Positions 11,817-45,560 of a stretch of 45,663 nt of DNA are shown in pieces. The stretch lies in contig NZ_LQPT01000094.1 of the NCBI RefSeq assembly GCF_002102355.1, forward strand, positions 1 through 45,663. Direction: 5' to 3'. Source of the DNA: Mycobacterium sherrisii. GTDB lineage: Bacteria; Actinomycetota; Actinomycetes; Mycobacteriales; Mycobacteriaceae. Under the pieces are notes generated by a model that saw nothing but the letters and a program-made list of their open reading frames with translations, had not been told where the DNA came from and made no database searches. Position numbers and translations under genes: made by a program. The first letter of the stretch is position 1. Each line of letters starts with the position of its first letter.

Positions 11817-11867
11817 GGTCGTTCGAAAGCACCTGCGAGCCAGCCAGATTGGATCCCTAATTCGATC

Positions 11868-12358: not shown

Positions 12359-12372
12359 CTTCGCGGGTGGTA

Positions 12373-27572: not shown

Positions 27573-29003
27573 TCAGCCGGCGTCGGGCGCGTAACCCAGT
27601 GTGCTTTTGACTTCCAGATACTCGCGGAAGCCGAAATCGCTCCACTCGCGGCCGTTGCCGCTGCGCTTGTACCCGCCGAAGGGTGCGTTCAGGTCAAACG
27701 CGTGGTTGATCGTCACCCATCCGGCGCGGATCCGGCGAGCAACCTCGCGCGCCTTGTCGAGGTCGGCCCCCGAGACGAACCCGGCCAAGCCGTAATCGGT
27801 GTCGTTGGCGATCTCGACGGCGTGGTCGATGTCGTCATAGCCGAGGATGCACAGCACCGGCCCGAAGATTTCTTCGCGTGCGATCGTCATGTCGTTGGTG
27901 ACGTCCGCGAAGACGGTGGGCCGGACGTAGTAGCCCTTGTCCAGCCCCGGCGGCCGGCCCGGACCTCCCGCGACCAGCGTCGCGCCCTCGTCGATGCCCT
28001 GTTGGATCAGCCGCTGCACCCTGTCGAACTGCGCCTTCGAGGCGACCGGTCCGATCGAGGTCGCGTCGTCGGCGTCGCCCACCACGACTTTCTCGGCTAT
28101 CGCTCGGGCGATCGTAATGGCCTCGGCCAGCCGCGAATTCGGGACCAACAGTCGTGACGGTGCGTTACAACTCTGCCCGGAGTTGGGCATCATGTTCGCC
28201 ACGCCGGCGCTGACGCTCTCGGCGAACCCAGTGTCATCGAGGACGATGTTGGGGCTTTTCCCGCCGAGTTCTTGGGTCACTCGCTTAACGGTCGGCGCGG
28301 CGTTCTTCGCCACCTCGACGCCGGCGCGGGTCGAGCCGGTGAACGACACCATGTCGACGCCTGGGTGGCTCGTCAGAGTCACACCCACGCCAGCGCCGTC
28401 GCCGTTGACGAGGTTGAACACCCCGGGCGGCACGCCCGCGGCGTCGAGGATCTCCGTGAAGATGTAGGGCGAATAGGGCGCCACCTCAGAGGGTTTGAGG
28501 ATGACCGTGCACCCGCACGCCAACGCCGGGTACACCTTGACCGCGACCTGGTTGATCGGCCAGTTCCACGGCGTGATCAAGCCGCAGACCCCGATGGGCT
28601 CCCGGGCGATCAGCGTCGCCCCGTGCTGCTCCTCGAACGGGAAGTTCTTCAGCACGTCGATGGCCGTGGTCAGGTGACCGATCCCGAGAAAGACCTGGGG
28701 TCCGGCCGCCAGCGACGGAGGTGCGCCGATTTCTTCGGTGACGGCCTCGGCCAGATCGTCCGCCCGCTTCTGGTACTCGGCCAGGATTGCCTGCAGCAGA
28801 TCCAGGCGCTGCTCGCGGGTGCTTTGCGACCAGTCGCCGAAGGCCCGCCGGGCGGCGTTGACCGCCACGTCGACGTCGGCCGCCGACCCCAGCGAAATTC
28901 TGCCGGACACCTGTTCGGTCGCCGGGTTGTCGACGTCGAAAGTGTTGGGACGCACCGGGTCGACCCATTGTCCGTCGATGTAGAACTTCAGGTAGTCGCG
29001 CAT
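27573..29003 (-). CDS. NAD(P)+-dependent aldehyde dehydrogenase
   Basis: A 476-residue ALDH-superfamily enzyme of normal length. Landmarks: PWNWPINQVAVKVYPALACG (cofactor site), VSFTGSTRAGVEV, the catalytic Glu in QELGGKSPNIVLDD and the catalytic Cys in NSGQSCNAPSRLL. The C-terminal GGYKRSGNGREWSDFGFREY is typical. It oxidises an aldehyde to the acid. It is the last gene of the minus-strand catabolic operon, 27 bases after the ThDP enzyme, and so could take the aldehyde released by that lyase or decarboxylase. The substrate is not deducible from sequence. Confidence 0.92.
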   Translation of the reverse strand: MRDYLKFYIDGQWVDPVRPNTFDVDNPATEQVSGRISLGSAADVDVAVNAARRAFGDWSQSTREQRLDLLQAILAEYQKRADDLAEAVTEEIGAPPSLAAGPQVFLGIGHLTTAIDVLKNFPFEEQHGATLIAREPIGVCGLITPWNWPINQVAVKVYPALACGCTVILKPSEVAPYSPYIFTEILDAAGVPPGVFNLVNGDGAGVGVTLTSHPGVDMVSFTGSTRAGVEVAKNAAPTVKRVTQELGGKSPNIVLDDTGFAESVSAGVANMMPNSGQSCNAPSRLLVPNSRLAEAITIARAIAEKVVVGDADDATSIGPVASKAQFDRVQRLIQQGIDEGATLVAGGPGRPPGLDKGYYVRPTVFADVTNDMTIAREEIFGPVLCILGYDDIDHAVEIANDTDYGLAGFVSGADLDKAREVARRIRAGWVTINHAFDLNAPFGGYKRSGNGREWSDFGFREYLEVKSTLGYAPDAG

Positions 29004-29030
29004 CAGATCGTCCCTTTCTCGCCGGCTGGT

Positions 29031-30737
29031 CTACTGGGTGCCCTCGGCGTACCAGGTGCGGAATTCGTCGTATTTGGGCATCTCCTCGGAGTTGGCCTTC
29101 GGATCGATGCAGACGTGGACGACGGCGGTCTTGCCGCTGGCGTAGGACCGCGCGATCGCCGGACCGATTTCCTCCTCCTTCTCGACGTACTCGCCGTGGC
29201 AGCCGAAGCCCTCGGCGACCTTGTCCAGCCGGACGTCCTTGCTCCAGTGCACGCCGGGCTGCGGCGACGGCTGGGGGAAGGTGCGCTTGTAGACGCCGAC
29301 TTCCAGCCCCCATTGGTGGTCCACGCCCACCACGCAGACCAGCGGAAGGTTTTGCCGCGCAGCGGTTTCCAACTCGGCGATGTGGAAAAGAAACGCCGAG
29401 TCGCTGGTCAACAGCATCACCGGACGCCGACCGCCGTCGGCGACCGACGCGCCGATCGCATACGGCAGACCGGTGCCCAGGTGGCCGAAGTTCTGGTTCC
29501 AGATGACGTCGTGCGGTTTGGCCTGCGAGTAGGTCCAGCCGAAGATGACGGTCGCGCCGCCGTCGCGCACCATGATCCCATTCTCCGGGAACGCCCGGGT
29601 GGCCTCGACGATGAACCGCGCCGGGTGAACCGGCGTCCGCCCGGCCGGGGCAGTGTCGGCCAGCTGCGCCAGCTCCGCGGCGTCGTCACCGATCCAGCGC
29701 TGCAGATCTGCCGACGGCGCGCGCGGCGTGTCGCGCAGCGCGTTCACCAGCTGGGGCAACACGCCACGCAGGTCGCCGACCAGCGGCAGGTCGATGGGAC
29801 GGTTGACGCCGATGGCCAGCGGATCCTGTTCGACCAGAACCCATTTGCGCTTGGCGTCGTTCGCCGCCCAGTGCCGGGTTCTGCCGTAGTGGCTCGGTTC
29901 GCCGAGCTCCGTGCCCAGGGCGACGCACAGGTCGGATTTCACCACCGCCTCGACGGCGGCCGGCGAGAACCCGTAGGCGAAGGTGCGATCCTCGAGGCCG
30001 TCGATGAACGACGTGCCGCCGGAGGTCTGGATCACCGGGCATTGCATCAGGTCGGCGAGCTGCTTGACCACCGCACCGGTGCGTGAGGTGTGAACCCCGT
30101 GACCCACCAACAGGATCGGGCTTTCTGCCGCCCGGATCAACTCCGCCGCCTCGGTCACCTCGCGTTCGCCCGCGGTTTGGTTGACGAGCCGATACCGTTG
30201 GGGCGGCAGCGGATCCGGCACGTCGAGCTCGGCGAGGATGACGTGTGACGGGTACTCGACGTAGGCCGGGCCGGGGGTGCCGGACATGGCGCGGCGGAAT
30301 GCCTCGCGGATAATTTCGTCGGTTTGCTCGGCGTACTCGATGGCGGCGCTGTACTTCACCGATGCCGTGAACAACGGTTCCTGGCGGACGAATTGGATGC
30401 GACCACGCCGGACGCGGCGTTCGGTGATGCGGGCGCGCTGGCCGCCGAGGAAGATCACCGGCGAGTTCTCCACCTTGGCGCACTGGATCGCGCCGGCCAT
30501 GTTGGCCATGCCCGGGCCGAGCGTGCCGATGCACAGGCCGGGCTTGCCCGTCATGCGCGATGCCGCCTCGGCCATGAATCCCGCGCTCAGTTCGTGGTGC
30601 GGCGCGACCACCGACCAGCCGCGGGCGTCGGCCTCGGCGAACATGTGCACGAAGTTCGGGTCGGGGATGCCGAACAGGGTATTCACCCCCTCGGCCTCGA
30701 ACAGGTCGAGAATGCGCTGGTACACGGGCACGGCCAT
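29031..30737 (-). CDS. thiamine diphosphate-dependent enzyme (acetolactate synthase/decarboxylase/lyase superfamily)
   Basis: A 568-residue enzyme with AAGGAG 9-12 bases before ATG 30737. The three ThDP-family domains are visible: the pyrimidine domain with catalytic Glu in APHHELSAGFMAEAASRMTG, the central domain (residues ~190-330) and the PP domain. The usual GDGxF...NN cofactor motif is altered to TSDSAFLFHIAELETAA ... VVGVDHQWG: the first Gly is Ser and the Asn-Asn pair is replaced. Members include acetolactate synthase, benzoylformate decarboxylase and 2-hydroxyacyl-CoA lyase; which reaction applies here is open. With a CoA transferase upstream and an aldehyde dehydrogenase downstream, a C-C-cleaving lyase or decarboxylase giving an aldehyde is plausible. 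Confidence 0.85.
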   Translation of the reverse strand: MAVPVYQRILDLFEAEGVNTLFGIPDPNFVHMFAEADARGWSVVAPHHELSAGFMAEAASRMTGKPGLCIGTLGPGMANMAGAIQCAKVENSPVIFLGGQRARITERRVRRGRIQFVRQEPLFTASVKYSAAIEYAEQTDEIIREAFRRAMSGTPGPAYVEYPSHVILAELDVPDPLPPQRYRLVNQTAGEREVTEAAELIRAAESPILLVGHGVHTSRTGAVVKQLADLMQCPVIQTSGGTSFIDGLEDRTFAYGFSPAAVEAVVKSDLCVALGTELGEPSHYGRTRHWAANDAKRKWVLVEQDPLAIGVNRPIDLPLVGDLRGVLPQLVNALRDTPRAPSADLQRWIGDDAAELAQLADTAPAGRTPVHPARFIVEATRAFPENGIMVRDGGATVIFGWTYSQAKPHDVIWNQNFGHLGTGLPYAIGASVADGGRRPVMLLTSDSAFLFHIAELETAARQNLPLVCVVGVDHQWGLEVGVYKRTFPQPSPQPGVHWSKDVRLDKVAEGFGCHGEYVEKEEEIGPAIARSYASGKTAVVHVCIDPKANSEEMPKYDEFRTWYAEGTQ

Positions 30738-30820
30738 GCTGGAAACTCCTTAGGGATAGCTCACCGTGAGCGGCCGGAAAGCCGACGTCTCCGGATTGCA
30801 GCGAAATATGCTGCGGCGGT

Positions 30821-31975
30821 TCACGACTCGACCTGCAGTTCGAGCATGCCGAGTATCTCTGCGGTGTGGGCGCCGAGCTCGGGCGCGGGCCCGGCAACGC
30901 GGCCCGGCGTCCGGGAAAACCAGGTCGGCACGCCGGGGAAACGCACCGGCCCGTGCGGGGTGTCCACCGTCTCGAACATGCCGACGGCCTGCAGGTGCGG
31001 GTCGTGGAACAACGCATCCGGCGTGTTCAGCGGCGCGACGGGTATCTCGAGTTCACGCAGCAGCGTCAACCACTCCGCGGTACTGCGCTCTTTCATGGTC
31101 TCGGCCACCAGGCCGTACACGGTGTCGATGTGGCGGGCGCGTTGTTCCAGCGTGGAATACAGCTCGCTGGCCCACGGCGGCCGCACGGCCTGCATGAAGG
31201 CCTGCCAATGCTTGTCGTTGTAGATCAACGCTGCGATGTGGCCGTCGCTGGTGCGGTACGGCCGGCGGTTGGGTGCCACGGTGCGCGGATATACCGCCGG
31301 ACCCAACGGCGGCTCGAACAGCGCACCGTTGGCGTGTTCGACGAGCATGAACGAGGCCATAGTCTCGAACATGGCGACCTCGACCTCTTGCCCCTCGCCG
31401 GTGCGCTCGCCGTGGAACAGCGCCATCGTCGTCGCGTACAGCGCCGTCAGGCCGGCGATCTTGTCGGCCATGATGGTGCCGACGTAGTCGGCCTCGCCGG
31501 TCAGTTGCTGTTGCACGGCGGGCAGGCCGCACTCGGCCTGGATGGTGTCGTCATAGGCAGGGCGGTCGCGGTCGGGGCCGCGGCGCCCGTACCCGTAGCA
31601 GTTCGTGTACACGATCGCGGGATTGATCGCGGCAACGTCGCCGTAGCCGAAGCCGAGCTTGGCGATCGCTTTGGCGCGCATTGAGTGGATGAACACGTCC
31701 GCGGTTTCGACCAGCGCGCGTAACGCCCGGACTCCCGCGTCGGTTCGCAAGTCCAGCACGACGCTGCGCTTGCCCCGGTTGACGTTGACGAATACCCCGC
31801 TCATGCCCGGCGCCGGACCCACCGAGATGTAGCGGGTGTTATCTCTTTGGGGCGGTTCGACTTTGATCACGTCGGCGCCCATGTCGGCCATGATCTGGGT
31901 GCAATACGGCCCCATCACCATCGCGGTTAGGTCGATCACGCGCACCCCGGACATCGGGCCGGTCTGGCTAGCCAT
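30821..31975 (-). CDS. family III CoA transferase (CaiB/BaiF type)
   Basis: A 384-residue CoA transferase. The N-terminal GVRVIDLTAMVMGPYCTQIMADMGADVIKVE is cut short here to its core, VIDLTAMVMGPYCTQIMADM, which is diagnostic. It is followed by NRGKRSVVLDLRTDAGVRAL, ADVFIHSMRAKAIAKLGFGY and the active-site region GEADYVGTIMADKIAGLTAL, where the catalytic Asp is expected. It moves CoA between acyl groups (formyl, succinyl, carnitine and others). Its ATG overlaps the stop of the upstream SDR by eight bases, so the two are translationally coupled. It would activate an acid of the pathway without ATP. 83 bases separate it from the ThDP gene. Confidence 0.9.
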   Translation of the reverse strand: MASQTGPMSGVRVIDLTAMVMGPYCTQIMADMGADVIKVEPPQRDNTRYISVGPAPGMSGVFVNVNRGKRSVVLDLRTDAGVRALRALVETADVFIHSMRAKAIAKLGFGYGDVAAINPAIVYTNCYGYGRRGPDRDRPAYDDTIQAECGLPAVQQQLTGEADYVGTIMADKIAGLTALYATTMALFHGERTGEGQEVEVAMFETMASFMLVEHANGALFEPPLGPAVYPRTVAPNRRPYRTSDGHIAALIYNDKHWQAFMQAVRPPWASELYSTLEQRARHIDTVYGLVAETMKERSTAEWLTLLRELEIPVAPLNTPDALFHDPHLQAVGMFETVDTPHGPVRFPGVPTWFSRTPGRVAGPAPELGAHTAEILGMLELQVES

Positions 31976-32918
31976 TGAGCGCTCCTTGGTCCGTGCAGCG
32001 GTGCGCCAGCTCGAAGCTGTAGCGGATGTGTTCGTTGTGTCCGTTCGGGACGGCCGGAAAGATCAGCGGCGCGTCGACGTACCGGATGGCGTCGAGATGG
32101 CTGCCGACGTCCTCGATGGTCCACGCCGGCCAGCACACGCCGGGGCTCTCGGCGATGACGGCCCGGGCCACCCGGCCCGCCAGCGCGATGAACAGTTCAC
32201 CGGTGACCGAGCACGATTCATGAGCGAGCCAACCCACCACGGGGGCAACGAGTTCCGGGCCCATCGGCGGGTAGGACGAGGTGTCGATGCCGTCGGCCAT
32301 GCGGGTCACGGCCGCGGGCACGATCACGTTGCAGCGCACCCCCTCGGCGGCCCCTTCCAGCGCCGCGACGTTGGCCAGCCCGATCACGCCCGCCTTCGCG
32401 GCCGCGTAATTGGCCACGTTGTGGTTCCCGTACAGCCCGCCGATCGACGAGGTCAGCACGATGCGGCCGTAACCCGCCGAACACATCAGCGGGAACGCCT
32501 GCCGCACCACGTTGAACGCGCCGCGCAGGTGCACGTCGAGCACGGCGTCGAAGTCCTCGTCGTTCATCTCCTTCAGCGAGGCGTGGCGTACGTTGCCGGC
32601 GTTGTGGATCACGACGTCGATCCCGCCGAAGTGCTCGAGCGCGGTCGCGACGATGTCATGGGCCCCGTCGCGGGTCGTCACCGTCGCAGTGGACGCGACG
32701 GCGGTGCCCCCGGCCGCGGTGATCTCGCCGACCACCTGCTGCGCCGGGCCGGCGTCGACGCCGGTCCCGTCGAGGCCGCCGCCGACGTCGTTGACGACCA
32801 CCTTCGCCCCGCGTTCGGTGAGCAGGTGGGCATATGCGCGACCCAGTCCGCGACCGGCACCGGTCACCACGGCAACGCGGTTGTCGAATCGCAGTGGCGG
32901 CGCCACGGTTTCACTCAA
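31968..32918 (-). CDS. short-chain dehydrogenase/reductase (MFE-2-like, with C-terminal extension)
   Basis: A 316-residue SDR. The start is placed at TTG 32918, whose TTGA overlaps the upstream monooxygenase stop; a GTG four codons later is the main alternative. A much longer open frame to 33344 is antisense-like and rejected. Cofactor motif VAVVTGAGRGLGRAYA near residue 15, NDVGGGLDGTG, VIHNAGNVRHAS, the Ser in LTSSIGGLYG and Tyr/Lys in YAAAKAG. GAGRGLGRAYA with NDVGG resembles the hydroxyacyl dehydrogenase half of peroxisomal MFE-2. The roughly 70-residue tail after the SDR core (VCWPAWTIEDVGSHLDAIRY) is part of this subgroup. It probably oxidises a hydroxy intermediate. Confidence 0.87.
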   Translation of the reverse strand: MSETVAPPLRFDNRVAVVTGAGRGLGRAYAHLLTERGAKVVVNDVGGGLDGTGVDAGPAQQVVGEITAAGGTAVASTATVTTRDGAHDIVATALEHFGGIDVVIHNAGNVRHASLKEMNDEDFDAVLDVHLRGAFNVVRQAFPLMCSAGYGRIVLTSSIGGLYGNHNVANYAAAKAGVIGLANVAALEGAAEGVRCNVIVPAAVTRMADGIDTSSYPPMGPELVAPVVGWLAHESCSVTGELFIALAGRVARAVIAESPGVCWPAWTIEDVGSHLDAIRYVDAPLIFPAVPNGHNEHIRYSFELAHRCTDQGALNG

Positions 32919-34768
32919 CGGCCGAGCACCAGCCCTTCCAGGTCGCCCTTGTCGCGCCACCCCCGCAGCAAATCCTCGAAGGCGTAAAAGCCTGGGCCGT
33001 AGGGCTCCCCCAGGTGCGACCGGATGCCCTCTCCCGCCGCCGCACCCATACCGCCGCCTTCGTTGTTGTAGTAGCCCGGCGTGCACTGGGCGTCGAACGC
33101 CGAGTTGTCCACCGCGGTTTCCCGGATGGTCGCGCACCACTGCTCTTGTGCCGCTTGGCTGGGCTCCACCGTGACCGCCCCCCGCTTCAGCGCTTCGGCG
33201 ATGACGTAGGCGATGTGTTCGCCCTGCAGTTCGTAATTCGCGGCGATGTTGGCCGAGATACCGACCTGGGTGAATCCGGTATAGAACTGGTTTGGGAAGC
33301 CGCGGCTGATCATCCCGTGCAGGGTCTGGTAGCCGTCGCGCCAATAGTCGAACAGCGACACTCCGTCGCGTCCCTGGATTGCCTCGATCGAGTACCGCCG
33401 GCTGATTTCGGTGGTGATTTCGAAGCCGCTGGCGTAGATGATGCAGTCCAGCTCGTATTCGACGCCGTTGGCCACCAAGCCTCTTTCGGTGGCCCGCTCA
33501 ACGCCTTTGCTAGCCGACACGTCGACCAGTGTGACGTTCGGGCGGTTGAAGCTCGGCAGGTAGTCGTCATTGGAACAGGGCCGCTTGCACAGGAATCGGT
33601 AGTACGGCTTGAGGGCCTCGGCGGTCGCCGGGTCGTCGATCAGGGCGTCGATGCGGCGGCGCAGCCGCTCCATGATCTTGTAGTCCTCTTCCTCTCGGAT
33701 AGCCATGAACTGCTCGGGTGTCATCGACGCGGGATCGTCGAGGGCCAGCACCCGTGCGGCGGTGTTGCGTCCCAACTCGGTCCAGAAGTCGCACACCAGG
33801 TCCGGCTGCCCCAGCGCCATTCCCTCGAACGTCCAGGAGTGGAAGTTGCGCTGCCGTTCCCGTTGCCAGCCGGGTCGCAGCGTCTTGACCCATTCCGGAT
33901 CGGTCGCGGTGTTGTTGCGCTGGTCCACGGTCGACGGCGTGCGCTGAAACACGTACAGATGTTTGGCGTCGCGGGCCAGGAAGGGAACGATCTGGATCCC
34001 GGTGGCACCGGTACCGACCACCGCGACGCGCTTGTCGGCCAGCTTGTGCAGGCCCCCGGTGACGTCGCCCCCGGTGTAGTCGTAGTCCCACCGGGACGAG
34101 TGAAAGCTGTGTCCGCGAAAGGCTTTGATACCGGGGATGCCGGGCAGCTTCGGTCGGTGGAACGGGCCCGAGGCGAGCACGACGAACCGCGCGCGGATGT
34201 CGTCGCGATTGGTGCTGATTCGCCAGCGCTTGAGCTGTTCATCCCAACGCAGTTCGCGCACCTGGGTGGAGAAGATGGCCGAGTCGTACAGGCCGAAATG
34301 TTTACCGATGTTGCGACAGTGCTGGTAGATTTCGGCGCCGTCGGCGAACTTCTTCGACGGCATGAAGCCGAGCTCTTCGAGCAGCGGTATGTAGCAATAC
34401 GATTCGTTGTCGCATTGGATGCCCGGATAGCGGTTCCAATACCAGACCCCGCCGAAGTCGCCACCGAGCTCGACGATCCGCACGTCGTCGACGCCCGCCT
34501 TCTTCAGCTGCGCCGCCGACAGCAGGCCGGCGAACCCGCCGCCGAGCACCGCGACGTCGATGTCCGCACGGATCGGCTCGCGGGGTGTTACCGGGGTGTA
34601 GGGATCGACCTCGTAATAACCGGCGAAGTCGTCCTCGAGTTCGATGTATTGCTTGGAACCTTCGCTGCGGAGGCGCTTTTCGCGCTCGTGCGGGTACTTT
34701 GCACGCAGCACGTCGATGTCGAAATCATCGGGCGTCTGGGGCGGTCCGCAATTCTCGAACATTGTCAT
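32915..34768 (-). CDS. flavin-containing Baeyer-Villiger-type monooxygenase
   Basis: A 617-residue class B flavoprotein monooxygenase. An N-terminal extension of about 65 residues precedes the FAD site VAVLGGGFAGLLSAAQLKK. The Baeyer-Villiger fingerprint FRGHSFHSSRWDYD lies near residue 205 and the NADPH site VAVVGTGATGIQIVPFL near residue 240. It would insert oxygen next to a ketone to give an ester or lactone, using NADPH and O2. Its ATG overlaps the original stop of the Rieske gene (ATGA at 34765-34768), and its stop overlaps the SDR start. Intact throughout. The extended N-terminus is seen in hydroxyacetophenone- and cycloketone-type enzymes; the substrate is unknown. Confidence 0.9.
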   Translation of the reverse strand: MTMFENCGPPQTPDDFDIDVLRAKYPHEREKRLRSEGSKQYIELEDDFAGYYEVDPYTPVTPREPIRADIDVAVLGGGFAGLLSAAQLKKAGVDDVRIVELGGDFGGVWYWNRYPGIQCDNESYCYIPLLEELGFMPSKKFADGAEIYQHCRNIGKHFGLYDSAIFSTQVRELRWDEQLKRWRISTNRDDIRARFVVLASGPFHRPKLPGIPGIKAFRGHSFHSSRWDYDYTGGDVTGGLHKLADKRVAVVGTGATGIQIVPFLARDAKHLYVFQRTPSTVDQRNNTATDPEWVKTLRPGWQRERQRNFHSWTFEGMALGQPDLVCDFWTELGRNTAARVLALDDPASMTPEQFMAIREEEDYKIMERLRRRIDALIDDPATAEALKPYYRFLCKRPCSNDDYLPSFNRPNVTLVDVSASKGVERATERGLVANGVEYELDCIIYASGFEITTEISRRYSIEAIQGRDGVSLFDYWRDGYQTLHGMISRGFPNQFYTGFTQVGISANIAANYELQGEHIAYVIAEALKRGAVTVEPSQAAQEQWCATIRETAVDNSAFDAQCTPGYYNNEGGGMGAAAGEGIRSHLGEPYGPGFYAFEDLLRGWRDKGDLEGLVLGR

Positions 34769-36142
34769 CTACCGGAAAGCTCCTGCGGTTCGCCGGTACC
34801 CATGTACTTCGACAGCTGGTAGTGCAGGTTGACGGTGCTGCGCTCGCGGTACGGATTGGGCTTGGTGCCGCACGAAGCCGAGCGATTTCATGCCCTGCTG
34901 CACCGCCGCCATGTTGGAGAAGTCCTGCGGTAACACCGACCGCCACCGGGGGTCGCCGACCGGGGTGTACTCCCACTGCGTCTGCGGCTCTTCGCCTTTC
35001 GGGTACAGCTCGAAGACCGAGACCTCGAAGATGCACTTGTCCGGGTTGTAGCTGGGGTGTGGCCGCGCGCCGTAGCACAGCGCGCTGGTCAGGCCCTGCC
35101 CGATCTGGAAGTTGGGGAAGATCTGCCATGCGGTGCCGGCCCGGCCCAGGACGTCGGGTGGAATCGTCGGCCAGATCACGCCGCGGGCCTCGTCGTCGCG
35201 GCGTGCCGATGCCAGCCAGTGCTCGAGCACCTTGTCGGCCGGTGTGCCCTCGGGCAATTCGTCGACCAGCCGCTTGGCGGCGTTCACCAGCGTCTGGGTG
35301 GTGGTGGCATTGGTCTCCTCCATCGTGTACACCTGCATCTGGGCGGTCGACACCCGCGGGTCGGCTCCGGTGCCGAGGCGGATCTTGGACTTGGTTGCCT
35401 CCAGGTCCTCGGGTGCGTCGTAGCCGATGTGGCTGTGCCTGCCCTGTGCTTTCGCCCAGCCCTTGAACTCGCCGAACTGGTTGAACTCCGGATGGGTGGT
35501 GTAGACGTGGTAGGTCTCGTTGAACGCCTCCAGTGCGACCTTCCAATTGCAATCGAATTCAAGCCATTTGCGCCATTTGTAGCGCATGTTCTCACACCCG
35601 AACGGGTCCAGGATCTTCGCGGCGGGAAAGAGGTAATCGGCCAGCGGCTCGCAGTCGGGGTCCATGTTGATCCACAACCAACCGCCCCAGGTGTCGACCT
35701 GCACCGGCCGTAGGCGGGTGTTGTCGGCCGTGAGCGCGCCCTGCCAGTCCTGCTGCTCGCAGATGTGGGTGCAGGCTCCGTCCAGGCCGTAGGTCCAGCC
35801 GTGAAAGCCGCAGACGAAGGATTTGCGGGCCCGCCCGCAGGCATTCTTGGCGCCCGCGGGGATGTCGATGAGCCGGCGGCCGCGGTGCATGCAGACGTTG
35901 TGGTGGGCCGCACACTCTTTGGCGCCGGTGCGCACCACGATGATCGAGTCGTCGAGGATGTCGTAGGTCAGGTAGCTGCCCACCTCGGGCAGCTCTTCGA
36001 CCCGGCCGACCTGTTGCCAGACCTTGCGCCACAGCTTGTCCCGCTCGGCGCGGGCGTAGTCCTCGGAGAGGTAGGCCTCCACGCCGATCGTCATCGGCGT
36101 CGAAAGTTCCTCGGTCGCAGCATCTTTGGCGAGGTCAGTCAT
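34765..36142 (-). pseudogene. Rieske non-heme iron oxygenase alpha subunit, frameshifted near C-terminus
   Basis: Start at ATG 36142 (MTDLAKDAATEELSTPMTIG), 5 bases after AGGAGG; ATG 36145 is just upstream. The Rieske cluster ligands are C84-x-H86 (NVCMHRGRRL) and C111-x2-H114 (FVCGFHGWTYG), with a rather long spacing of 24 residues. The mononuclear iron His pair is in FNETYHVYTTHPE. The frame as given runs on to TAG at 34769 with a foreign tail. Removing one base at about 34870-34873 restores GTKPNPYRERSTVNLHYQLS and a natural TGA at 34765-34767 overlapping the next gene's ATG, giving about 458 residues. Only the last 35 residues are affected, so activity might survive. It would hydroxylate an aromatic or alicyclic substrate and needs a reductase not seen here. 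Confidence 0.88.
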
Positions 36143-37004
36143 CATATCCTCCTAATCGCCGCGCGGAAGGATTCGTCATGTAGGAACAGCGACGTGTTGT
36201 CGGCGCCGAGATGGCTCCACTTCAGGTCCAGGCCGCCGTCGACGAGCAGCGTCTGGCCGGTGATGTAACTGGACAGCTGCGACAGCAGGAACAGAATCGC
36301 GCCGCCTGCTCTTCGGGACGGCCGCGCCGACCCATCGCGATCGCCCGCCGATCGCGTTCGGGGTCCTCGTCGACGTAGGTGCGTGAGGCCGCCGTCGCGG
36401 TGATACCGGGCGCCACGGCGTTGACACGAATTCCCGCCAGCGCCAATTCAAGCGCCATGGTGCGGGTCATCGCCGTGATCGCGGCTTTGGCCGTCCCGTA
36501 GGCGACGTGAAACGGTGCGGTGTTCATGCCGCTGATCGAGGAGATCGACACGATCGAACCCGCCTGTCGCTGCGCGACGAGTTCGCGCGCCACGGCTTGG
36601 CTCATGAAGAAGGCCGTTTCGAGGTTGTCGGCGAAAATCTTGTGCCAGTCGGCGCGCGTCACCCGGGTGGACGGCATCCATGTCGAGGGTTCGGCTCCAC
36701 CGGCGACGTTGACCAGCCCGTACAGGTTGCCGTCGGCGCGGCGCGCCTGGTCGAGCACCGCGGCGATGCCCTCGTCGGTGGCCGCGTCGGCCGCGACGGG
36801 CACCACGGCCAGACCCTGGTGGGCCAGCGGGGCGACGTGTTCGTCGAGGTTTGCCTTCGACCGGCTCACCGCGATCACCGTGGCACCCGCCCGGGCGGCC
36901 ATCGCGGTAATAGTCGTGCCGATGCCGCCCCCGCCGGCGCCGGAGACCACGACCACGCGGCCGTGCAGCCCGAGCAGACCGCCAGGATCCGGGTGACCGT
37001 TCAT
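36142..37004 (-). pseudogene. short-chain dehydrogenase/reductase, frameshifted near C-terminus
   Basis: First gene of the minus-strand catabolic operon, from ATG 37004. Cofactor motif VVVVSGAGGGGIGTTITAMA near residue 16, LVNVAGGAEPS, catalytic Ser in VSISSISGMNTAP and Tyr/Lys in YGTAKAAITA. After GRPEEQA the frame turns to Cys/Arg/Ser-rich nonsense and stops at 36222. One missing base at about 36303-36305 explains this. In the alternative frame the typical SDR ending GAILFLLSQLSSYITGQTLL and VDGGLDLKW appear, running to TGA 36142-36144, which overlaps the Rieske start. Restored length about 287 residues. The lost part forms the final strand and cofactor wall, so the truncated enzyme is probably inactive. 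Confidence 0.87.
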
Positions 37005-37193
37005 GACAACCGTTCGCCTACCTCAGCCAGGTTATTCGTCCGGACCAAATATCGCGTTCTGTCCTTTGGAGAACACTATTCCGATCGGTGGACTTGGCCG
37101 TCAAGGTCGGGCGACGACGCTTCGCGACTATTGTCTGGACTACATGGACTTTGATAGCGTCCAGCCCAAACGGCCGACGGAAGGATCCGGCGA
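37005..37193. promoter_or_regulatory. divergent promoter region with candidate GntR operators
   Basis: This 189-base gap must hold promoters for both catabolic operons. Two near-identical palindromes, GTCCGGAC at 37038-37045 and GTCTGGAC at 37133-37140, lie near opposite ends, each inside an imperfect AT-flanked dyad (TATTC...AAATA and CTATT...TACAT). They are natural candidates for binding by the GntR/HutC protein encoded at 38816. The functional assignment is inference. Confidence 0.45.
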
Positions 37194-38816
37194 GTGGTGG
37201 CCTTCGCAACGCTGCCGTCGCGCTATGCCGCGGCGGATTCCGGGGCAGCGCCCATCGACGTCGCCGCCGGGTGGGAGTTGCAACGCGTCACCGCGCCGAG
37301 CCGGCTGTTCGGCGCCAACGGTCTGCGCACCGGACCCGATGGTCGCATCTACATCGCGCAGGTGACCGGCAGCCAGATCAGCGCGCTGGATCACCGCACC
37401 GGGGAGCTGGTGACCGCGAGCCCCAAGGGCGGCGATATCGTCGCGCCCGACGACGTCGCCTTCGATGCCCGCGGCAACCTGTACGCCACGGAGGTGATGG
37501 ACGGCCGGGTCAGCGTGCGCGACATCGGCGGTCATACGCGGGTGTTGCGCGCCGACGTGCCGTGCGCCAACGGCATCACCTTCCACCGGGATCGGCTGTT
37601 CATCGGTGAATGTCGAGACGGCGGACGGCTGCTGGAATTCGACCTGGCCGGTGGGCAGGCGCGGGTGCTGTTGGAGAACGTGCCCTCACCCAATGCGATG
37701 GAGGTGGGCCCGGACGGTTTGCTCTACTTCCCCGTCATGACCGCCAACGAGATCTGGCGCATCGATCCCGACGGTGGCGAGCCGCACTGCGTGGCACGGG
37801 ATCTCGGCGTCCCGGATTCGGTCAAGTTTGACGCTGACGGCTACCTGGTGTCGACGCAGGTGGCCAGCGGGCAGGTGCTGCGCATAAATCCGCGCACCGG
37901 CGAACAACGTGTGCTCGCCCAGCTGAATCCGGGATTGGACAACTGCACATTCGTCGGAGATCGGCTGTTCGTCTCCAACTTCACCGGCGAGATCACCGAG
38001 ATAGCACCGGACGGTACCGCGCAACCGGTGTTGGCGGGCGGACTCAACTGGCCGCTGGATCTGGCGGTGGGCCACGACGGGTTGCTCTACATCGCCGACG
38101 GCACCTATTTCTATGCCGCGCTGCCCGACGGTTCGCTACACACCGCGGGAATGCTGTTCAGCCCCGGTTACCCGGGGTTCCTGCGGGGCGTGGCCGCGGC
38201 CGGCCCGGGCGAGTTCGTCGTCACCACCTCCGGGGGCCAGGTCGGCCGCTACCGGCCGGCGTCGAACGAAACCGAGTTCCTGGCAGACGGTTTCGATCAG
38301 CTCTACGGTGTCGCGCTCGGCCCCCGCGGAGTAATCGTTGCGGAGCTGGGCACCGGCCGGGTGCTGGCGTTGCGCTCGGGTGCCGTCACGGTGCTGGCCG
38401 CCGATCTGCAGGAGCCCGTCGGCGTCACGATCGACACCGACGGGTCATGCCTGATCGCGGAGTCCGCTGTGGGCCGGGTGATCCGGGCGAATCGCGCCAC
38501 GATCGATACCGTGATCGACGATCTGCAACGACCGCAGGGCATTCTGGTTCACGACGGTGTCCTCTACGTCGTCGACGCGGGCGCCAAGGAGGTGGTCGCG
38601 TTCGATCCGACCGGCCGCACCCGGCAATCGATCGCGTCCGGGTTGCCGATCGGCGCCCCACCCGGTGTGACGCCGAAACCGTTGCGCGGCATGCCTCCGT
38701 TCTCCGGGCCGCAGGGCCCGTTCGCCGGCATCGCCGCAGCGGCCGACGGGACGCTTTACATCTCGGCCGACGGCGACGGCAGCGTGCTGGCACTACGCCG
38801 GACCGGGGCCGACTGA
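37194..38816 (+). CDS. double SMP-30/gluconolactonase-like beta-propeller protein
   Basis: A 540-residue protein from GTG 37194, with GGAAGGA upstream; GTG 37197 is an equal alternative. It is built of many NHL/SMP-30-like blades such as LRTGPDGRIYIAQVTGSQIS, MEVGPDGLLYFPVMTANEIW, LAVGHDGLLYIADGTYF and VTIDTDGSCLIAESAVGRVI. The length is nearly twice that of an ordinary SMP-30 enzyme (about 300), consistent with two propellers or one large one. No signal peptide is visible. SMP-30 relatives are calcium-dependent lactonases, so it could hydrolyse a lactone made by the Baeyer-Villiger enzyme of the divergent operon; that is inference. The stop overlaps the GntR start (TGATG). Confidence 0.8.
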   Translation: MVAFATLPSRYAAADSGAAPIDVAAGWELQRVTAPSRLFGANGLRTGPDGRIYIAQVTGSQISALDHRTGELVTASPKGGDIVAPDDVAFDARGNLYATEVMDGRVSVRDIGGHTRVLRADVPCANGITFHRDRLFIGECRDGGRLLEFDLAGGQARVLLENVPSPNAMEVGPDGLLYFPVMTANEIWRIDPDGGEPHCVARDLGVPDSVKFDADGYLVSTQVASGQVLRINPRTGEQRVLAQLNPGLDNCTFVGDRLFVSNFTGEITEIAPDGTAQPVLAGGLNWPLDLAVGHDGLLYIADGTYFYAALPDGSLHTAGMLFSPGYPGFLRGVAAAGPGEFVVTTSGGQVGRYRPASNETEFLADGFDQLYGVALGPRGVIVAELGTGRVLALRSGAVTVLAADLQEPVGVTIDTDGSCLIAESAVGRVIRANRATIDTVIDDLQRPQGILVHDGVLYVVDAGAKEVVAFDPTGRTRQSIASGLPIGAPPGVTPKPLRGMPPFSGPQGPFAGIAAAADGTLYISADGDGSVLALRRTGAD

Positions 38817-39556
38817 TGGCCCAGGCGATCGCGGCCGACCACCGCTATCTGCAGATCGCGCGCACGCTGCGTAGGGAGATCGTCGACGGCGTGTACCCGG
38901 TGGGTTCGCAGCTGCCGACCGAACACCAGCTGTGCGAGCGGTTCGCGGTGAGCCGCTACACCATTCGCGAAGCGCTACGGCGGCTGCGCGAGGACAACCT
39001 GATCGCGTCCCGGCCGCGCGCGGGCACCCGGGTGGTGCCTCGGCCTGCCTCGAGTTCCTATGCCCAGGACGCGATGTCGATCGACGATCTACTCGCGTTC
39101 GCGGCCGGCGCGCAGCTGACGATCGAGTCCAACGCGATGGTGACCATCGACGACGACCTGGCCGCCCGGACCGGCCTCGAGGCCGGCAGCCAATGGCTCT
39201 CGGTGCGCGGCTACCGGCAGGCCGACGGGACGACGGTGCCAATCTGTCGAACCGAGTACTACATCAGCCGGAGTTTCGCCGCGGTCGGCCGGCTGCTGCA
39301 ACGCCACGCCGGACCTATTTTTCCGTTGATCGAGGACCTGTTCGGTGTGAGCATCGCTGCGCTGCACCAGGAAATCGCCGCCGTCGTGCTCTCCCCCGAG
39401 CTGGCCGACGGGCTCGGGGCGGCGGCCGGTACCGCCGCCCTGCAGATGCGGCGCACCTACACCACCTCCGATGGCGAGGTGGCCCAGGTGACGATCAACA
39501 CCCACCTGTCGTCGAGATTCCGCTACGCCATGACGATGCGCCGGGTGACCGGGTAA
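38816..39556 (+). CDS. GntR-family (HutC subfamily) transcriptional regulator
   Basis: A 246-residue regulator. Residues 5-75 form the winged helix-turn-helix (GSQLPTEHQLCERFAVSRYT, then IREALRRLREDNLI and SRPRAGTRVV). Residues 95-240 form a UTRA ligand-binding domain, with the usual conserved Arg/Tyr in VPICRTEYYIS and the Leu-rich GTAALQMRRTY. HutC-type regulators are commonly repressors released by a pathway intermediate. The start codon overlaps the stop of the propeller gene, and the gene lies at the centre of the catabolic locus, so it is the obvious local regulator of both divergent operons. Confidence 0.92.
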   Translation: MAQAIAADHRYLQIARTLRREIVDGVYPVGSQLPTEHQLCERFAVSRYTIREALRRLREDNLIASRPRAGTRVVPRPASSSYAQDAMSIDDLLAFAAGAQLTIESNAMVTIDDDLAARTGLEAGSQWLSVRGYRQADGTTVPICRTEYYISRSFAAVGRLLQRHAGPIFPLIEDLFGVSIAALHQEIAAVVLSPELADGLGAAAGTAALQMRRTYTTSDGEVAQVTINTHLSSRFRYAMTMRRVTG

Positions 39557-39578
39557 GGCCGCCCAGGATGAGGTCGAC

Positions 39579-41189
39579 GTGAGCGTCTCGCCCCCGCGGG
39601 ACCCGGCGCAGGCGGCGGAGGCGTATCGCCGCGGATTGTGGGTGCACACCACCCTGGCCGATTCGCTGCGCACGGCCGCGGAACGGTCGCCTGAGCGAAT
39701 CGTATTGGTAGATAGGAATATTCGGCTCGATTGTGCCACGTTATATGCCCAAGCCACCGCACTGGCCAGCGACCTGGTGTCGCGGCTGCCGGCGGGCAGC
39801 GTGGTTTCGTTCATGCTGCCGAACTGGCACGAGGCCGCCGTCATCTATCTCGCGGCCACCCTGGCCGGGATGGTGGTCAACCCGATCCTGCCGTCGCTGC
39901 GCGAGCACGACCTGCGGTTCATTCTCGAAGATGCCGCCAGCGCCATCATTTTCGTCCCGCACAGTTACGGCGGGCATGACTATGCGGCGATGCTCGACCG
40001 CGTGACCGCCACGATGAAACCGGCCCCGGCCGTGGTGGTGCTGCGCGGCGACGCCGGTCGGCACCTACCGTTCCGGCAATTGCTCGAACGGCCGCCGGGC
40101 GTCCCGGCCCTGCCGGCGCTGGATCCCGACGCGGTACGGATGATTCTCTACACCTCCGGCACCGCCGGTCGTCCCAAAGGCGTGCTGCACAGCCATAATT
40201 CGCTGCATGCGCTGATTTTTCAGATCCGCGGTCACTGGATGGTGACCCCCGGCGACACCTTCCTGGTGCCGTCGCCGATCGCCCATATCGGGGGGTCGAT
40301 CTACGCGTTCGAATGCCCGCTGCTGCTGGGCAGCACCGCGGTGCTGATGGACCGATGGGATGCGGCCGAGGCGGTCGCGCTGATGGACGCCGAACGCTGT
40401 ACCCACATGGCCGGCGCCACTGTTTTTCTGCAGCAACTGTTGTCCGCCGCCGAACGCGCCGGCACCCGGCTGCCCCACCTGAAGGTGTTCGTCTGCGGCG
40501 GCGCATCCGTACCGCCGTCGCTGATCCGCCAGGCCGCACGGTATTTCGACCGGGCGGTCGTCACCCGGGTGTACGGCTGCACGGAAGTGCCCGTCACCAC
40601 CGTCGGCGCACCACGGCCTGACGAAGCGGACCGGGCCGCCGACACCGATGGGCGGCCCGGCATCGCCGAGATCGAGCTCGTCGCGCACGATGCCGCACCC
40701 GCCGGTGACGCCGAGATCTGTGTGCGCGGACCGCAGATGTTCGCGGGCTACCGCCGTCCCGAGGACAACGCCGAGTCCTTCGACGCCGCAGGGTTTTTCC
40801 GCACCGGCGACCTCGGACGCTGGAGGGACGGCCAGTATCTCGTCGTCACCGGCCGCGTCAAGGACGTGATCATCCGCAGCGGTGAGAACATCTCGGCCAA
40901 GGAGGTCGAGGACCTGCTGGCCGACCATCCCGACATCGCCGAGATCGCCATCGTCGGACTGCCCGATGACCGGACCGGGGAACGGGCGTGCGCGGTGATC
41001 GTGCCCAGCGGTGCGGCGCGACCGGACGTCGCGAGCCTGCTGAAGCTGCTGGTGAGCAAGGGTGTCGCCAAATTCAAGGCGCCGGAACAGGTTGTGCTCT
41101 GGGATGCCCTGCCGAAAAACGATGCCGGCAAGGTTCTCAAGCGTCGGATCCGGGAGTCGTTGATCCGGGCGGAGGCTAAGGATGGCTGA
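39579..41189 (+). CDS. AMP-dependent acyl-CoA synthetase/ligase
   Basis: A 536-residue ANL-superfamily ligase from GTG 39579, with AGGATGAGG upstream and a 22-base gap after the regulator gene. Motifs: [19 protein letters not shown] near residue 187, [36 protein letters not shown] and the catalytic Lys in [12 protein letters not shown]. It activates a carboxylic acid with ATP to an acyl-adenylate and then an acyl-CoA. The type resembles cyclohexanecarboxylate- and medium-chain acyl-CoA ligases, but the acyl pocket cannot be read with confidence. The stop overlaps the next SDR gene by eight bases. Confidence 0.9.
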
Positions 41190-41964
41190 GATGCAAGTCG
41201 CGATCGTCACCGGAGCAAGCAGCGGCATCGGTTGGGGGTGCGCCACCAAGCTCGCAGAGCTGGGCATGGCGGTCGTCGGCACCGGCCGCGACCGGGACCG
41301 GCTGGCCGCTCTGCAGGAGGCGGTCGGCACGCCGGACCGCATCGAGACCCTTGCGGTCGATCTGACCGACGACGACGCGCCCCGCCGCATCGTAGACGTC
41401 GCGGTCGACCGGTGGGGCCGCATCGACTTCCTGATCAACAACGCCGGGGTGGGCAGCCCCAAACCACTACACGAAACCGACGACGAAACCCTAGACTATT
41501 TCCTGGATTTGATGCTGCGGGCCCCGTTTCGACTGGCGCGCGAGGCGCTGCCGCACATGGCACCGGGCTCGGCCATCATCAACGTCACGTCGACCTTCGC
41601 AGTCGTGGGCGGCCTGCGCGGCGGCGCCTACTCCGCGGCCAAGGGCGGACTCACCGCGCTCACCACACACATCGCCTGCCAGTACGGTGCGTCCGGAATC
41701 CGCTGCAACGCGGTTGCGCCCGGCGTGACGGTGACGCCGATGGTGCAGCGGCGCCTGCAGGACGAGCAATTCCGCAAGATCAACACGGAGATGACGCCGC
41801 ACCAGCGGCTCGGCCGGATCGACGACATCGCCAGCACGGTCGCCTTCCTGTGCTCCCCAGGCGGAAGTTTCATCAACGGCCAAACGATCGTCGTCGACGG
41901 CGGCTGGAGCTCGACCAAGTATTTGTCGGAGTCCGCCTTGGCGGCACAGTGGATCCAGCGATGA
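41182..41964 (+). CDS. short-chain dehydrogenase/reductase
   Basis: A 260-residue SDR, intact. Cofactor site [20 protein letters not shown] near residue 6, [13 protein letters not shown], catalytic Ser in [13 protein letters not shown], Tyr/Lys in [12 protein letters not shown] and the terminal [14 protein letters not shown]. It probably interconverts an alcohol and ketone in the pathway. It is translationally coupled on both sides: its ATG lies inside the end of the ligase gene, and its TGA overlaps the next gene's ATG (ATGA, 41961-41964). Confidence 0.92.
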
Positions 41965-43433: not shown

Positions 43434-43463
43434 GCCCGGTCCGCCACGAAAGGGAGGTCGCAA

Positions 43464-44624: not shown

Positions 44625-44646
44625 CCGTCCCCAAATTCGCGGCAGC

Positions 44647-45117
44647 TCAAGCGGATTCGAAGTGGCGGCGGATTCCGGCCAACATCGCGAGGTGCGCCTT
44701 GACCCCCTCGCGCCTGGTCACCCGGGCCAGCGGCCGGGGTGCCGATATCCGGATTCGCTCGGTGATCCGCGTGCCGGTGACGGGATCCCGGATCGGTTCG
44801 AAGCTCACCATTCCGCGCAGGCGAACGCCGGGCGATTGATCGGCCTCGGTGAGCACGTCTCCGGTACGGCGGACATGCACGCACGCGTGGTAGGTGATCT
44901 CCTTGGTGAAGGGTCCCAGCGGAATTCGATCGACGACGCGGTAGCTCTGCCGGTAGCCGTCCGGCGTTTCGCTGCGCTCGAGCGCCTCGACCGAGACGAT
45001 CAGCGGGTGCACGAGTCTGATGTTGTCCAGATTTACGTAGAAGTCGCGCACCGCCTCCGGCGGGGCGGGCACTTCTTCTGAGAGCGCGTGTTCGGAGTGC
45101 GCCGTCCAGAGGCTCAT
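44647..45117 (-). CDS. SRPBCC/START-like ligand-binding domain protein
   Basis: A 156-residue cytoplasmic protein (MSLWTAHSEHALSEEVPAPP). It begins with the strand-turn typical of polyketide cyclase/SRPBCC domains and has the helix APPEAVRDFYVNLDNIRLVH. Long strands follow (ITYHACVHVRRTGDV; GTRITERIRISAP) and a C-terminal helix (VKAHLAMLAGIRRHFES). Such folds bind hydrophobic ligands in a cavity. No catalytic residues can be assigned. It converges on the alcohol dehydrogenase (22-base gap) and is divergent from the SnoaL-like gene. Confidence 0.75.
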   Translation of the reverse strand: MSLWTAHSEHALSEEVPAPPEAVRDFYVNLDNIRLVHPLIVSVEALERSETPDGYRQSYRVVDRIPLGPFTKEITYHACVHVRRTGDVLTEADQSPGVRLRGMVSFEPIRDPVTGTRITERIRISAPRPLARVTRREGVKAHLAMLAGIRRHFESA

Positions 45118-45191
45118 AGCACAGAACCTAGCCTGGCGGCGACCTCCCGCTTACCGTGGACCCACGAGCGAGCGGAGAAGCGGAGAAGTTA

Positions 45192-45560
45192 GTGGGCACG
45201 CAACATGAAGTGGTCGAGCGCTACCTGGAATGCCTGGCCGCTCATGATTGGGACGGGCTGGCCGACACCATCGCCGAGGAGGGCCTGACCCGCGAGGGGC
45301 CGTTTTGCGACGTCGTCGAGGGCAAGGCGCACTACGTCGCCTACCTGCGCAAGGTGTGCACCAGCCTCAAGGGACACCGCCTCGACGTGCAGCGGGTCTC
45401 GCACGTGGACTCCCGGGTGTCGTACGCGGAGCTGTCCGAGACATTCGAGATCGACGACCTCGCGACCACCTGGCCCGAATGCATCCTTTTCGAGCAAGAC
45501 GCCGACGGCCTGATCGCTCGAGTGAGCGTGTTTTTCAAGCAACGACCGGCCACCGAATAG
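45192..45560 (+). CDS. SnoaL-like / NTF2-fold protein
   Basis: A 122-residue protein from GTG 45192, with GGAGAAG about 5 bases before it; a GTG at 45156 is possible but has no ribosome site. It opens with the helix VVERYLECLAAHDWDGLADT and has the core beta-sheet pattern of the NTF2 fold (AEEGLTREGPF; GLIARVSVFFKQRP). SnoaL-like proteins include cyclases, isomerases and hydratases of steroids and polyketides. The lack of a recognisable Asp/His dyad leaves the activity open. It borders the accessory locus and may act on its substrate or simply be a neighbour. Confidence 0.72.
   Translation: MGTQHEVVERYLECLAAHDWDGLADTIAEEGLTREGPFCDVVEGKAHYVAYLRKVCTSLKGHRLDVQRVSHVDSRVSYAELSETFEIDDLATTWPECILFEQDADGLIARVSVFFKQRPATE

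What the first reader, a model, noticed from the sequence alone, without database searches (positions are those of the whole stretch)
27573..45560. Large two-operon catabolic locus combining Rieske oxygenase, Baeyer-Villiger enzyme, double lactonase-like propeller and CoA/ThDP chemistry
Seen: two divergent operons around one 189-base promoter gap, with ATGA/TTGA/TGATG couplings between most genes and a HutC-type regulator inside. Known: Rieske oxygenases hydroxylate, SDRs and ADHs oxidise alcohols, Baeyer-Villiger enzymes make esters or lactones, SMP-30 relatives hydrolyse lactones, ligases and CoA transferases activate acids, ThDP lyases shorten carbon chains. Inference: a complete route for an unidentified alicyclic, aromatic or terpenoid-like compound, ring-opened through a lactone. 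I do not recognise this exact set as a described mycobacterial pathway. No Rieske reductase or ferredoxin is in view.
Basis: partly seen in the sequence, partly recalled or inferred. Interest (0 to 1): 0.75.

Follow-up and report, generated by a model that had tools for sequence, protein, structure and literature searches.

The report
Widespread undescribed ring-opening catabolic gene cluster
This mycobacterial DNA carries a two-operon gene set, shared by many mycobacteria and some soil bacteria, that probably dismantles a bulky ring compound of unknown identity, and in which relatives seem to have repeatedly swapped one pair of enzymes for an unrelated one.

Summary
The gene set is real and mostly as described, and it is not a local oddity. 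Its Rieske gene has a strong match in 154 of 198 mycobacterial genomes. A seven-gene core (propeller protein, SDR, Rieske, Baeyer-Villiger monooxygenase, SDR, ThDP enzyme, aldehyde dehydrogenase) recurs in other actinobacteria and on Rhodococcus and Sphingobium plasmids. The divergent gap holds two TTGTCYGGACAA-like palindromes in 94 of 94 gaps examined, 95-97 bp apart in 89, presumably the regulator's operators. The ThDP gene (101 genomes) and a luciferase-family gene (51) occur only with the Rieske gene, never together, and cover 152 of 154; the tree needs several swaps. I read this as non-homologous replacement of one carbon-carbon-cleaving, acid-forming step. In this genome the route is not intact: SDR-A and Rieske leave frame near their 3' ends, ligase B has an in-frame stop, and one operator is degenerate; recent decay and sequence error cannot be told apart. 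Best model: catabolism of a bulky alicyclic or terpenoid-like compound through a lactone. The substrate is unknown. Ten literature searches found no description.

The parts
27573..29003 (-). ALDH, aldehyde dehydrogenase; core gene
   Evidence: PF00171 495 bits; match at E up to 1e-185 in 100 of 101 ThDP genomes, 11 of 51 luciferase-family genomes, 13 of 44 genomes without the cluster
29031..30737 (-). ThDP-dependent enzyme (lyase/decarboxylase superfamily); core gene
   Evidence: three TPP Pfam domains; Glu49 invariant in 12 of 12; best PDB matches ALS 184 and HACL/OXC 174 bits; below the cut-offs of the 25 NCBIfam families shown of 52
30821..31975 (-). family III (CaiB/BaiF) CoA transferase; mycobacterial add-on
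   Evidence: PF02515 381 bits; 65 of 70 long named loci
31968..32918 (-). SDR-B, TTG start overlapping the BVMO stop; core gene
   Evidence: PF00106 146 bits on the longer ORF 31968-33344; TTGA coupling; 70 of 70 long named loci
32915..34768 (-). type I Baeyer-Villiger monooxygenase with N-terminal extension; core gene
   Evidence: NF045818 676 bits (cut-off 1100); PDB 5mq6 418 bits versus 249 for the next entry; FRGHSFHSSRWD read
34769..36145 (-). Rieske oxygenase alpha subunit; frame disrupted near the 3' end as sequenced; core gene
   Evidence: PF00355, PF00848; single-sequence matches to relatives end at about residue 425 of 458; cluster and iron ligand residues conserved
36222..37004 (-). 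SDR-A; frame disrupted near the 3' end as sequenced; core gene
   Evidence: PF00106; matches to relatives end at about residue 234 of 260
37036..37047 (.). operator-like site 1 (TCGTCCGGACCA), two mismatches to the palindrome
   Evidence: only 2 of 94 gaps have two mismatches at site 1
37131..37142 (.). operator-like site 2 (TTGTCTGGACTA), 95 bp from site 1
37194..38816 (+). SGL/ScyE-like propeller protein, probable lactone or ester hydrolase; core gene
   Evidence: PF08450 64 bits (cut-off 26.3); NF033206 125.8 bits (cut-off 80); N42, D87, N126, N167, N250 invariant in 13 of 13, D208 nearly so, at about 42-residue spacing
38816..39556 (+). GntR/UTRA (HutC-type) regulator
   Evidence: PF00392 69.9, PF07702 55.9 bits on the longer ORF; TIGR02018 87 bits, below cut-off 220; TGATG start
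39579..41189 (+). ligase A, AMP-forming acid-CoA ligase
   Evidence: PF00501 238 bits
41182..41964 (+). SDR-C
   Evidence: PF13561 211 bits
41961..43433 (+). ligase B, AMP-forming ligase with an in-frame TGA at 42174-42176
   Evidence: C-terminal piece PF00501 168 bits; single open frames in relatives such as L050 and L057
43464..44624 (+). NDMA-dependent (mycofactocin-type, by recall) alcohol dehydrogenase; variable add-on
   Evidence: TIGR03989 484.5 bits, cut-off 440; 19 of 70 long named loci
44647..45117 (-). SRPBCC-like protein; variable neighbour
   Evidence: PF10604 25.7 bits, below cut-off 27.4; 21 of 70 long named loci
45156..45560 (+). SnoaL-like protein; variable neighbour
   Evidence: PF12680 35.8 bits; 17 of 70 long named loci

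Best explanation
A catabolic pathway, probably controlled by one HutC-type regulator, for a bulky and probably polycyclic alicyclic or terpenoid-like compound. Shown: gene content, conserved order, shared operator-like sites, phylogenetic profile. Inferred: Rieske hydroxylates a ring or branch carbon (electrons from a reductase encoded elsewhere). SDR-A oxidises the alcohol to a ketone. The BVMO inserts oxygen to give a lactone, and the propeller enzyme hydrolyses it to a hydroxy acid. SDR-B oxidises the freed alcohol. The ThDP enzyme then cleaves a carbon-carbon bond next to a carbonyl (1,2-dione, acyloin, 2-oxo acid or 2-hydroxyacyl-CoA) to an aldehyde, which ALDH oxidises to an acid. In other lineages a luciferase-family flavin monooxygenase takes over the ThDP and ALDH steps as one flavin-peroxide oxidation. 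Ligases A and B and the CoA transferase feed the acids into beta-oxidation.
For: Core of seven genes: all seven seen in 8 of the 9 non-genus actinobacterial loci that carry the cluster (in L070 and L071 only the start of ThDP lies inside the stretch; the ninth, L066, begins at a contig end inside ThDP), and in Rhodococcus pUSK13_1 and Sphingobium pBSY17_1. Operator pair in 94 of 94 gaps, at least two sites in 3 of 1880 single-base shuffles. The exact palindrome occurs in 8 of 12 genomes, 11 places in all: 8 in this gap, one before a second propeller gene; the backwards control matched in 2 of 12 genomes. ThDP 101, luciferase-family 51, Rieske 154 of 198; overlap 0; both subsets of Rieske. ALDH in 100 of 101 ThDP genomes but 11 of 51 luciferase-family genomes. 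The luciferase-family label needs at least 9 changes on the Rieske tree, 4 forced by well-supported branches. Its protein's best PDB match is alkanal monooxygenase alpha, 100 bits. The BVMO scores highest with PDB 5mq6 (recalled: polycyclic ketone monooxygenase) and PtlE. An Antarctic Sphingomonas plasmid has a 59% BVMO near Rieske, SMP-30, SDR-type and CaiB/BaiF genes.
Against: No activity or substrate is known for any member. Exclusive occurrence shows substitution of modules, not identical chemistry, and genomes are not independent samples. The luciferase-family enzyme could use F420 (best NCBIfam match is the F420 family TIGR03619, below cut-off). ThDP and ALDH could act on a different part of the substrate; ALDH orthologs also occur in 13 of 44 genomes without the cluster. 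In the window copy three genes are disrupted, and this genome has no exact palindrome. Two of the 11 exact palindromes lie at places with no cluster gene. The ThDP metal motif is unusual (SDS...VDHQ instead of GDG...NN; pattern recalled), and its model had mean pLDDT 59.8, too low to use.
Confidence: 0.55

Rival explanations
1. Tertiary-alcohol / 2-hydroxy-acid route: Rieske makes a diol, ADH and ALDH give a 2-hydroxy acid, a ligase activates it, and the ThDP enzyme is a 2-hydroxyacyl-CoA lyase giving a ketone plus formyl-CoA; the BVMO then handles the ketone.
For: ThDP enzyme is in the HACL/OXC neighbourhood (174 bits); a GntR gene, ThDP lyase, ligase and ALDH sit together in Actinomycetospora. 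Both plasmid copies of the core have an AMP ligase gene nearby.
Against: The 2-hydroxyacyl-CoA lyase 7pt1 (recalled: the Actinomycetospora enzyme) scores only 117 bits, well below HACL/OXC and ALS. NF058623 150 bits against cut-off 600. No gene 30% or more identical to ligase A or B lies in the 20-kb stretches of 6 of the 9 non-genus actinobacterial loci (present in L065, L070, L071). The large BVMO and a lactonase-like gene are unnecessary.
Confidence: 0.12
2. Cyclic 1,2-dione cleavage: Rieske and SDR make a ring 1,2-dione; the ThDP enzyme hydrolyses it like cyclohexane-1,2-dione hydrolase and ALDH makes the diacid; the BVMO and propeller open another ring.
For: Explains why ThDP plus ALDH can be replaced by one flavin monooxygenase; CDH is among the PDB matches (108 bits).
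Against: CDH is not among the closest ThDP matches; this is a specific version of the main model without direct support.
Confidence: 0.2
3. Steroid catabolism or side-chain module.
For: Adjacent pairs of acyl-CoA dehydrogenase-like genes in relatives, bulky-ketone BVMO type.
Against: No steroid-specific family reached its cut-off among the NCBIfam families shown for the window proteins. No KstR-type site was looked for.
Confidence: 0.1
4. The window copy is a decaying remnant with no function in this strain (compatible with any of the pathway readings for relatives).
For: Three disrupted genes and a degenerate operator site.
Against: dN/dS of 13 cluster genes against M. triplex is 0.083-0.211, like 7 neighbours at 0.066-0.292, disrupted genes included. 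Draft-assembly errors are possible.
Confidence: 0.35

Closest known systems
Neopentalenolactone / pentalenolactone D synthase (PtlE) and PDB 5mq6-type BVMOs
   Same: BVMO sequence family with N-terminal extension; 47% identity to a Streptomyces plasmid gene annotated so
   Different: Biosynthetic there (recalled); here a catabolic-looking neighbourhood; score below the equivalog cut-off
Actinomycetospora lyase-HCL 2-hydroxyisobutyrate cluster (PMC7176365; abstract and outline, Results part 1 and Discussion seen)
   Same: GntR gene, ThDP lyase, ligase, ALDH together
   Different: No BVMO or lactonase-like gene among the cluster members in the table seen; the best-matching solved lyase of that annotation is not the closest relative
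Lactone routes of cyclic ketones and monoterpenes (cyclohexanone, limonene, camphor; recalled)
   Same: Dehydrogenase, BVMO, lactone hydrolysis, CoA activation
   Different: No Rieske oxygenase and no ThDP step in those routes as recalled
Luciferase-family enzymes: bacterial luciferase and type II (diketocamphane) monooxygenases
   Same: Protein family of the replacing gene
   Different: Here found in place of a ThDP enzyme plus ALDH; only 29 bits to the 3,6-diketocamphane enzyme

Membership tests
Type I BVMO | FxGxxxHxxxW(P/D) fingerprint and two GxGxxG motifs (recalled) | tested here: met
   FRGHSFHSSRWD, GGGFAG, GTGATG in the translation
NF045818 PtlE equivalog | score at or above 1100 bits | tested here: not met
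   675.9 bits
Rieske oxygenase alpha subunit | CxH...CxxH cluster; His-His-Asp iron site (recalled) | tested here: met
   C85, H87, C112, H115, H213, H218, D408 invariant in 17 of 17; Glu210 at the usual bridging-Asp place, by recall
SMP-30/gluconolactonase (SGL) | Pfam gathering score | tested here: met
   64.4 bits, cut-off 26.3
SMP-30/gluconolactonase (SGL) | bound metal and lactonase activity | not testable with these tools
   only conserved Asn/Asp residues seen
2-hydroxyacyl-CoA lyase (NF058623) | score at or above 600 bits | tested here: not met
   150.2 bits
Oxalyl-CoA decarboxylase (TIGR03254) | score at or above 739.4 bits | tested here: not met
   164.9 bits
ThDP enzymes | catalytic Glu and the GDG...NN metal motif (recalled) | tested here: inconclusive
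   Glu49 invariant in 12 of 12; metal motif reads SDS (or GDS) ... VDHQ/VDYA
HutC equivalog (TIGR02018) | score at or above 220 bits | tested here: not met
   87.1 bits; GntR and UTRA domains present
NDMA-dependent ADH (TIGR03989) | score at or above 440 bits | tested here: met
   484.5 bits
Two-site operator of the cluster | binding by the GntR protein | not testable with these tools
   sequence conservation only

The most novel reading that the evidence does not exclude
A widespread, undescribed catabolic pathway carried by most of the sampled mycobacterial species, some other actinobacteria and sphingomonads, in which one carbon-carbon-cleaving step has been swapped several times between a thiamine-dependent enzyme plus ALDH and an unrelated luciferase-family flavin monooxygenase, all under a two-palindrome operator with fixed spacing.
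Probability: 0.5. Interest if true: 0.72.

Novelty: new variant of a known kind. Interest (0 to 1): 0.6.

Why it matters
About three quarters of the sampled mycobacterial genomes keep this gene set, so its unknown substrate is probably common in their habitats or made by the cells themselves. The exclusive ThDP versus luciferase-family distribution suggests a direct swap experiment that would reveal the chemistry of both. The operator-like sites give a defined promoter for screening inducers, which could identify the substrate.

Tried and rejected
Rejected: (1) 'alpha/beta hydrolase replaces the propeller enzyme in Sphingobium': the plasmid's gene table lacked the gene, but tblastn found the propeller gene in two pieces from 21341 on in L166. 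(2) 'ACAD pair replaces ThDP/ALDH': in the four longer stretches of that type (L169, L170, L171, L179) ThDP and ALDH lie 4-5 kb beyond the CoA transferase. (3) Specific tert-butanol/2-hydroxyisobutyrate pathway: that lyase is not the nearest relative. (4) Rhodococcus pUSK13_1 carries a luciferase-family gene beside ThDP, but it is only 26% identical to the swapping one.

Led nowhere: structure of the ThDP enzyme (mean pLDDT 59.8; no fold search run). The propeller structure never ran. A crude frame check against M. triplex flagged 4 of 28 reference ORFs in the window, at least one of them antisense, and 5 of 11 on another contig where overlapping stretches confuse the count, so it does not separate decay from error. 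The Sphingobium RC1 BVMO (49%) sits in a different neighbourhood. None of the ten literature searches listed a description of this gene set; I saw parts of two of those papers (PMC7176365; passages of PMC4498894), the rest only in listings.
Full report
What is there. The window is one whole contig (45,663 bases) of a 5.56 Mb mycobacterial genome. Its nearest named relative among the 80 loci kept is Mycobacterium triplex (Rieske 94%; records very near the window's own genome may be left out there). Two operons diverge from a 189-base gap. Minus strand, outward from the gap: SDR-A, Rieske oxygenase, BVMO, SDR-B, family III CoA transferase, ThDP enzyme, ALDH. Plus strand: SGL/ScyE-like propeller protein, GntR/UTRA regulator, AMP ligase A, SDR-C, AMP ligase B, NDMA-type ADH; then an SRPBCC gene (minus) and a SnoaL gene.

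Disruptions. As sequenced, SDR-A and Rieske leave the frame of their relatives near their 3' ends, and ligase B has an in-frame TGA. Single-sequence searches end at the break; the alignment-based search lists Rieske matches to residues 449-458 for many loci, but the aligned tails are plainly different. Intact copies exist in relatives. dN/dS against M. triplex over the readable parts is 0.083-0.211 for 13 cluster genes and 0.066-0.292 for 7 neighbours. This suggests that selection held until recently, so the breaks are either recent or sequence errors. Operator site 1 is also degenerate (two mismatches, as in only 2 of 94 gaps), which leans slightly to decay.

Distribution. A Rieske match at E up to 1e-60 is found in 154 of 198 genus genomes. 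In a class-wide draw of 394 genomes it is found in 36 at E up to 1e-90: 24 of the same genus (own included), 1 of the same family, 11 of other families. I fetched 10 of these 12 non-genus hits; nine carry the cluster and one (42% identity) does not. All seven core genes are seen in eight of the nine, in two of them (L070, L071) with only the start of ThDP inside the stretch; the ninth starts at a contig end inside ThDP. They are also all present on Rhodococcus sp. USK13 plasmid pUSK13_1 and, with ALDH and propeller genes each in two tblastn pieces and SDR-B some 7 kb away, on Sphingobium sp. RAC03 plasmid pBSY17_1, a different phylum. Among the 70 of 80 named loci longer than 20 kb (the best 80 of at least 590 by identity), SDR-A, Rieske, BVMO and SDR-B are in 70 (match of at least 50% identity). 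Propeller, GntR, ligase A, SDR-C and CoA transferase are in 65. Ligase B is in 56. ThDP is in 50 within reach of the stretch; elsewhere it lies further downstream or in another part of the genome, or is replaced as told below.

Regulation. In 94 gaps (those of 110 loci with SDR-A and propeller genes on opposite strands; some genomes occur twice under two locus names) there are always at least two sites within two mismatches of TTGTCYGGACAA. The first and last are 95-97 bp apart in 89 of 94. Single-base shuffles give two or more sites in 3 of 1880. Of 12 whole genomes searched, 8 hold the exact palindrome, 11 places in all; the window's genome is one of the four without an exact copy. Eight places are this gap, one lies in front of a second propeller gene (64%) in a related second cluster of G102, and two have no cluster gene beside them. 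The backwards control pattern matched in 2 of the 12 genomes (G046 once, G011 five times on each strand). That the GntR protein binds the sites is inference.

The swap. Over the same 198 genomes: ThDP (E up to 1e-200) 101, luciferase-family gene (E up to 1e-140) 51, Rieske 154. ThDP and the luciferase-family gene never share a genome. Both are subsets of the Rieske set. Two Rieske genomes have neither (G059, G112; 540 and 420 contigs, both 7% contaminated). ALDH accompanies ThDP in 100 of 101 genomes, but is in 11 of 51 luciferase-family genomes and 13 of 44 without the cluster, so it is less specific. In the seven fetched loci that first showed it, the luciferase-family gene sits between Rieske and BVMO. 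On a quick Rieske tree of 120 rows (115 different; 121 loci offered, some genomes under two names, some long branches) its label needs at least 9 changes, 4 forced by well-supported branches; 78 rows have ThDP, 24 the luciferase-family gene, 18 neither in reach, none both. Its best PDB match is a bacterial luciferase alpha chain (100 bits); F420 enzymes score at most 49. Its best NCBIfam match, however, is an F420-type family, below cut-off.

Mechanism. The BVMO has an N-terminal extension: 418 bits to PDB 5mq6, 249 to the next entry, 676 bits to PtlE. By recall such enzymes take bulky, often polycyclic ketones. The propeller protein is SGL-like, with one conserved Asn/Asp per about 42 residues in its first half (N42, D87, N126, N167, N250 in 13 of 13, D208 nearly so), as expected of a lactonase ring; this is inference. 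ThDP plus ALDH, and alternatively one flavin monooxygenase, can both turn an oxidised carbon-carbon bond into carboxylic acids. That makes a 1,2-dione, acyloin or 2-oxo acid the likeliest substrate type, with a 2-hydroxyacyl-CoA as rival. Relatives add acyl-CoA dehydrogenases, an amidohydrolase and, in single cases, other genes. I commit to catabolism of a bulky alicyclic or terpenoid-like compound through a lactone, at 0.55 for the class of pathway and about 0.2 for the dione version.

Novelty. The parts belong to known families, so I file it as a new variant of a known kind: BVMO/lactone ring-opening catabolism. Ten literature searches listed no description of the set; most subscription-journal papers are not held in that library. 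The ThDP/luciferase-family replacement and the two-site operator are, as far as these searches reach, unreported; no search was made for the palindrome itself in print.

Noticed in passing
window 4548-14061: Maltokinase-like cap, trehalose synthase-like amylase, trypsin/PDZ protease, EF-G-like protein and an AMP ligase, which by recall is the order of the M. tuberculosis Rv0119-Rv0127 block: the cluster sits beside an otherwise conserved chromosomal neighbourhood.
   Followed up: partly
window 576-1391: IS21-family IstB-like ATPase near the contig end.
   Followed up: no
window 24517-25335: Methyltransferase-like gene whose M. triplex counterpart matches in two frames, another possible frame break outside the cluster.
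   Followed up: no
L221:7130-8758 and L075:8205-13503: A second, diverged cluster in genome G102 (propeller 64%, Rieske 51%, GntR 53%) with the same palindrome before its propeller gene.
   Followed up: partly
L172:8147-11738: Downstream of the cluster in a luciferase-family genome lie 2-oxo-acid/acetoin-dehydrogenase-like E1 and E3 genes, with a PucR-type regulator gene beside them.
   Followed up: no
L180:6636-9438: Mycolicibacter-like version ends in ALDH and has an acyl-CoA dehydrogenase, an enoyl-CoA hydratase and a MeaB-like gene nearby; its ThDP gene is elsewhere in the genome.
   Followed up: partly
L166:9677-12526: A type II CRISPR cas9/cas2 pair annotated beside the Sphingobium copy of the cluster.
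   Followed up: no
L225:15001-25487: Antarctic Sphingomonas plasmid with a 59% BVMO near Rieske, SDR-type, SMP-30, PEP-mutase-like and CaiB/BaiF genes: perhaps a cousin pathway, without ThDP among the listed genes (the plasmid gene tables are incomplete).
   Followed up: partly
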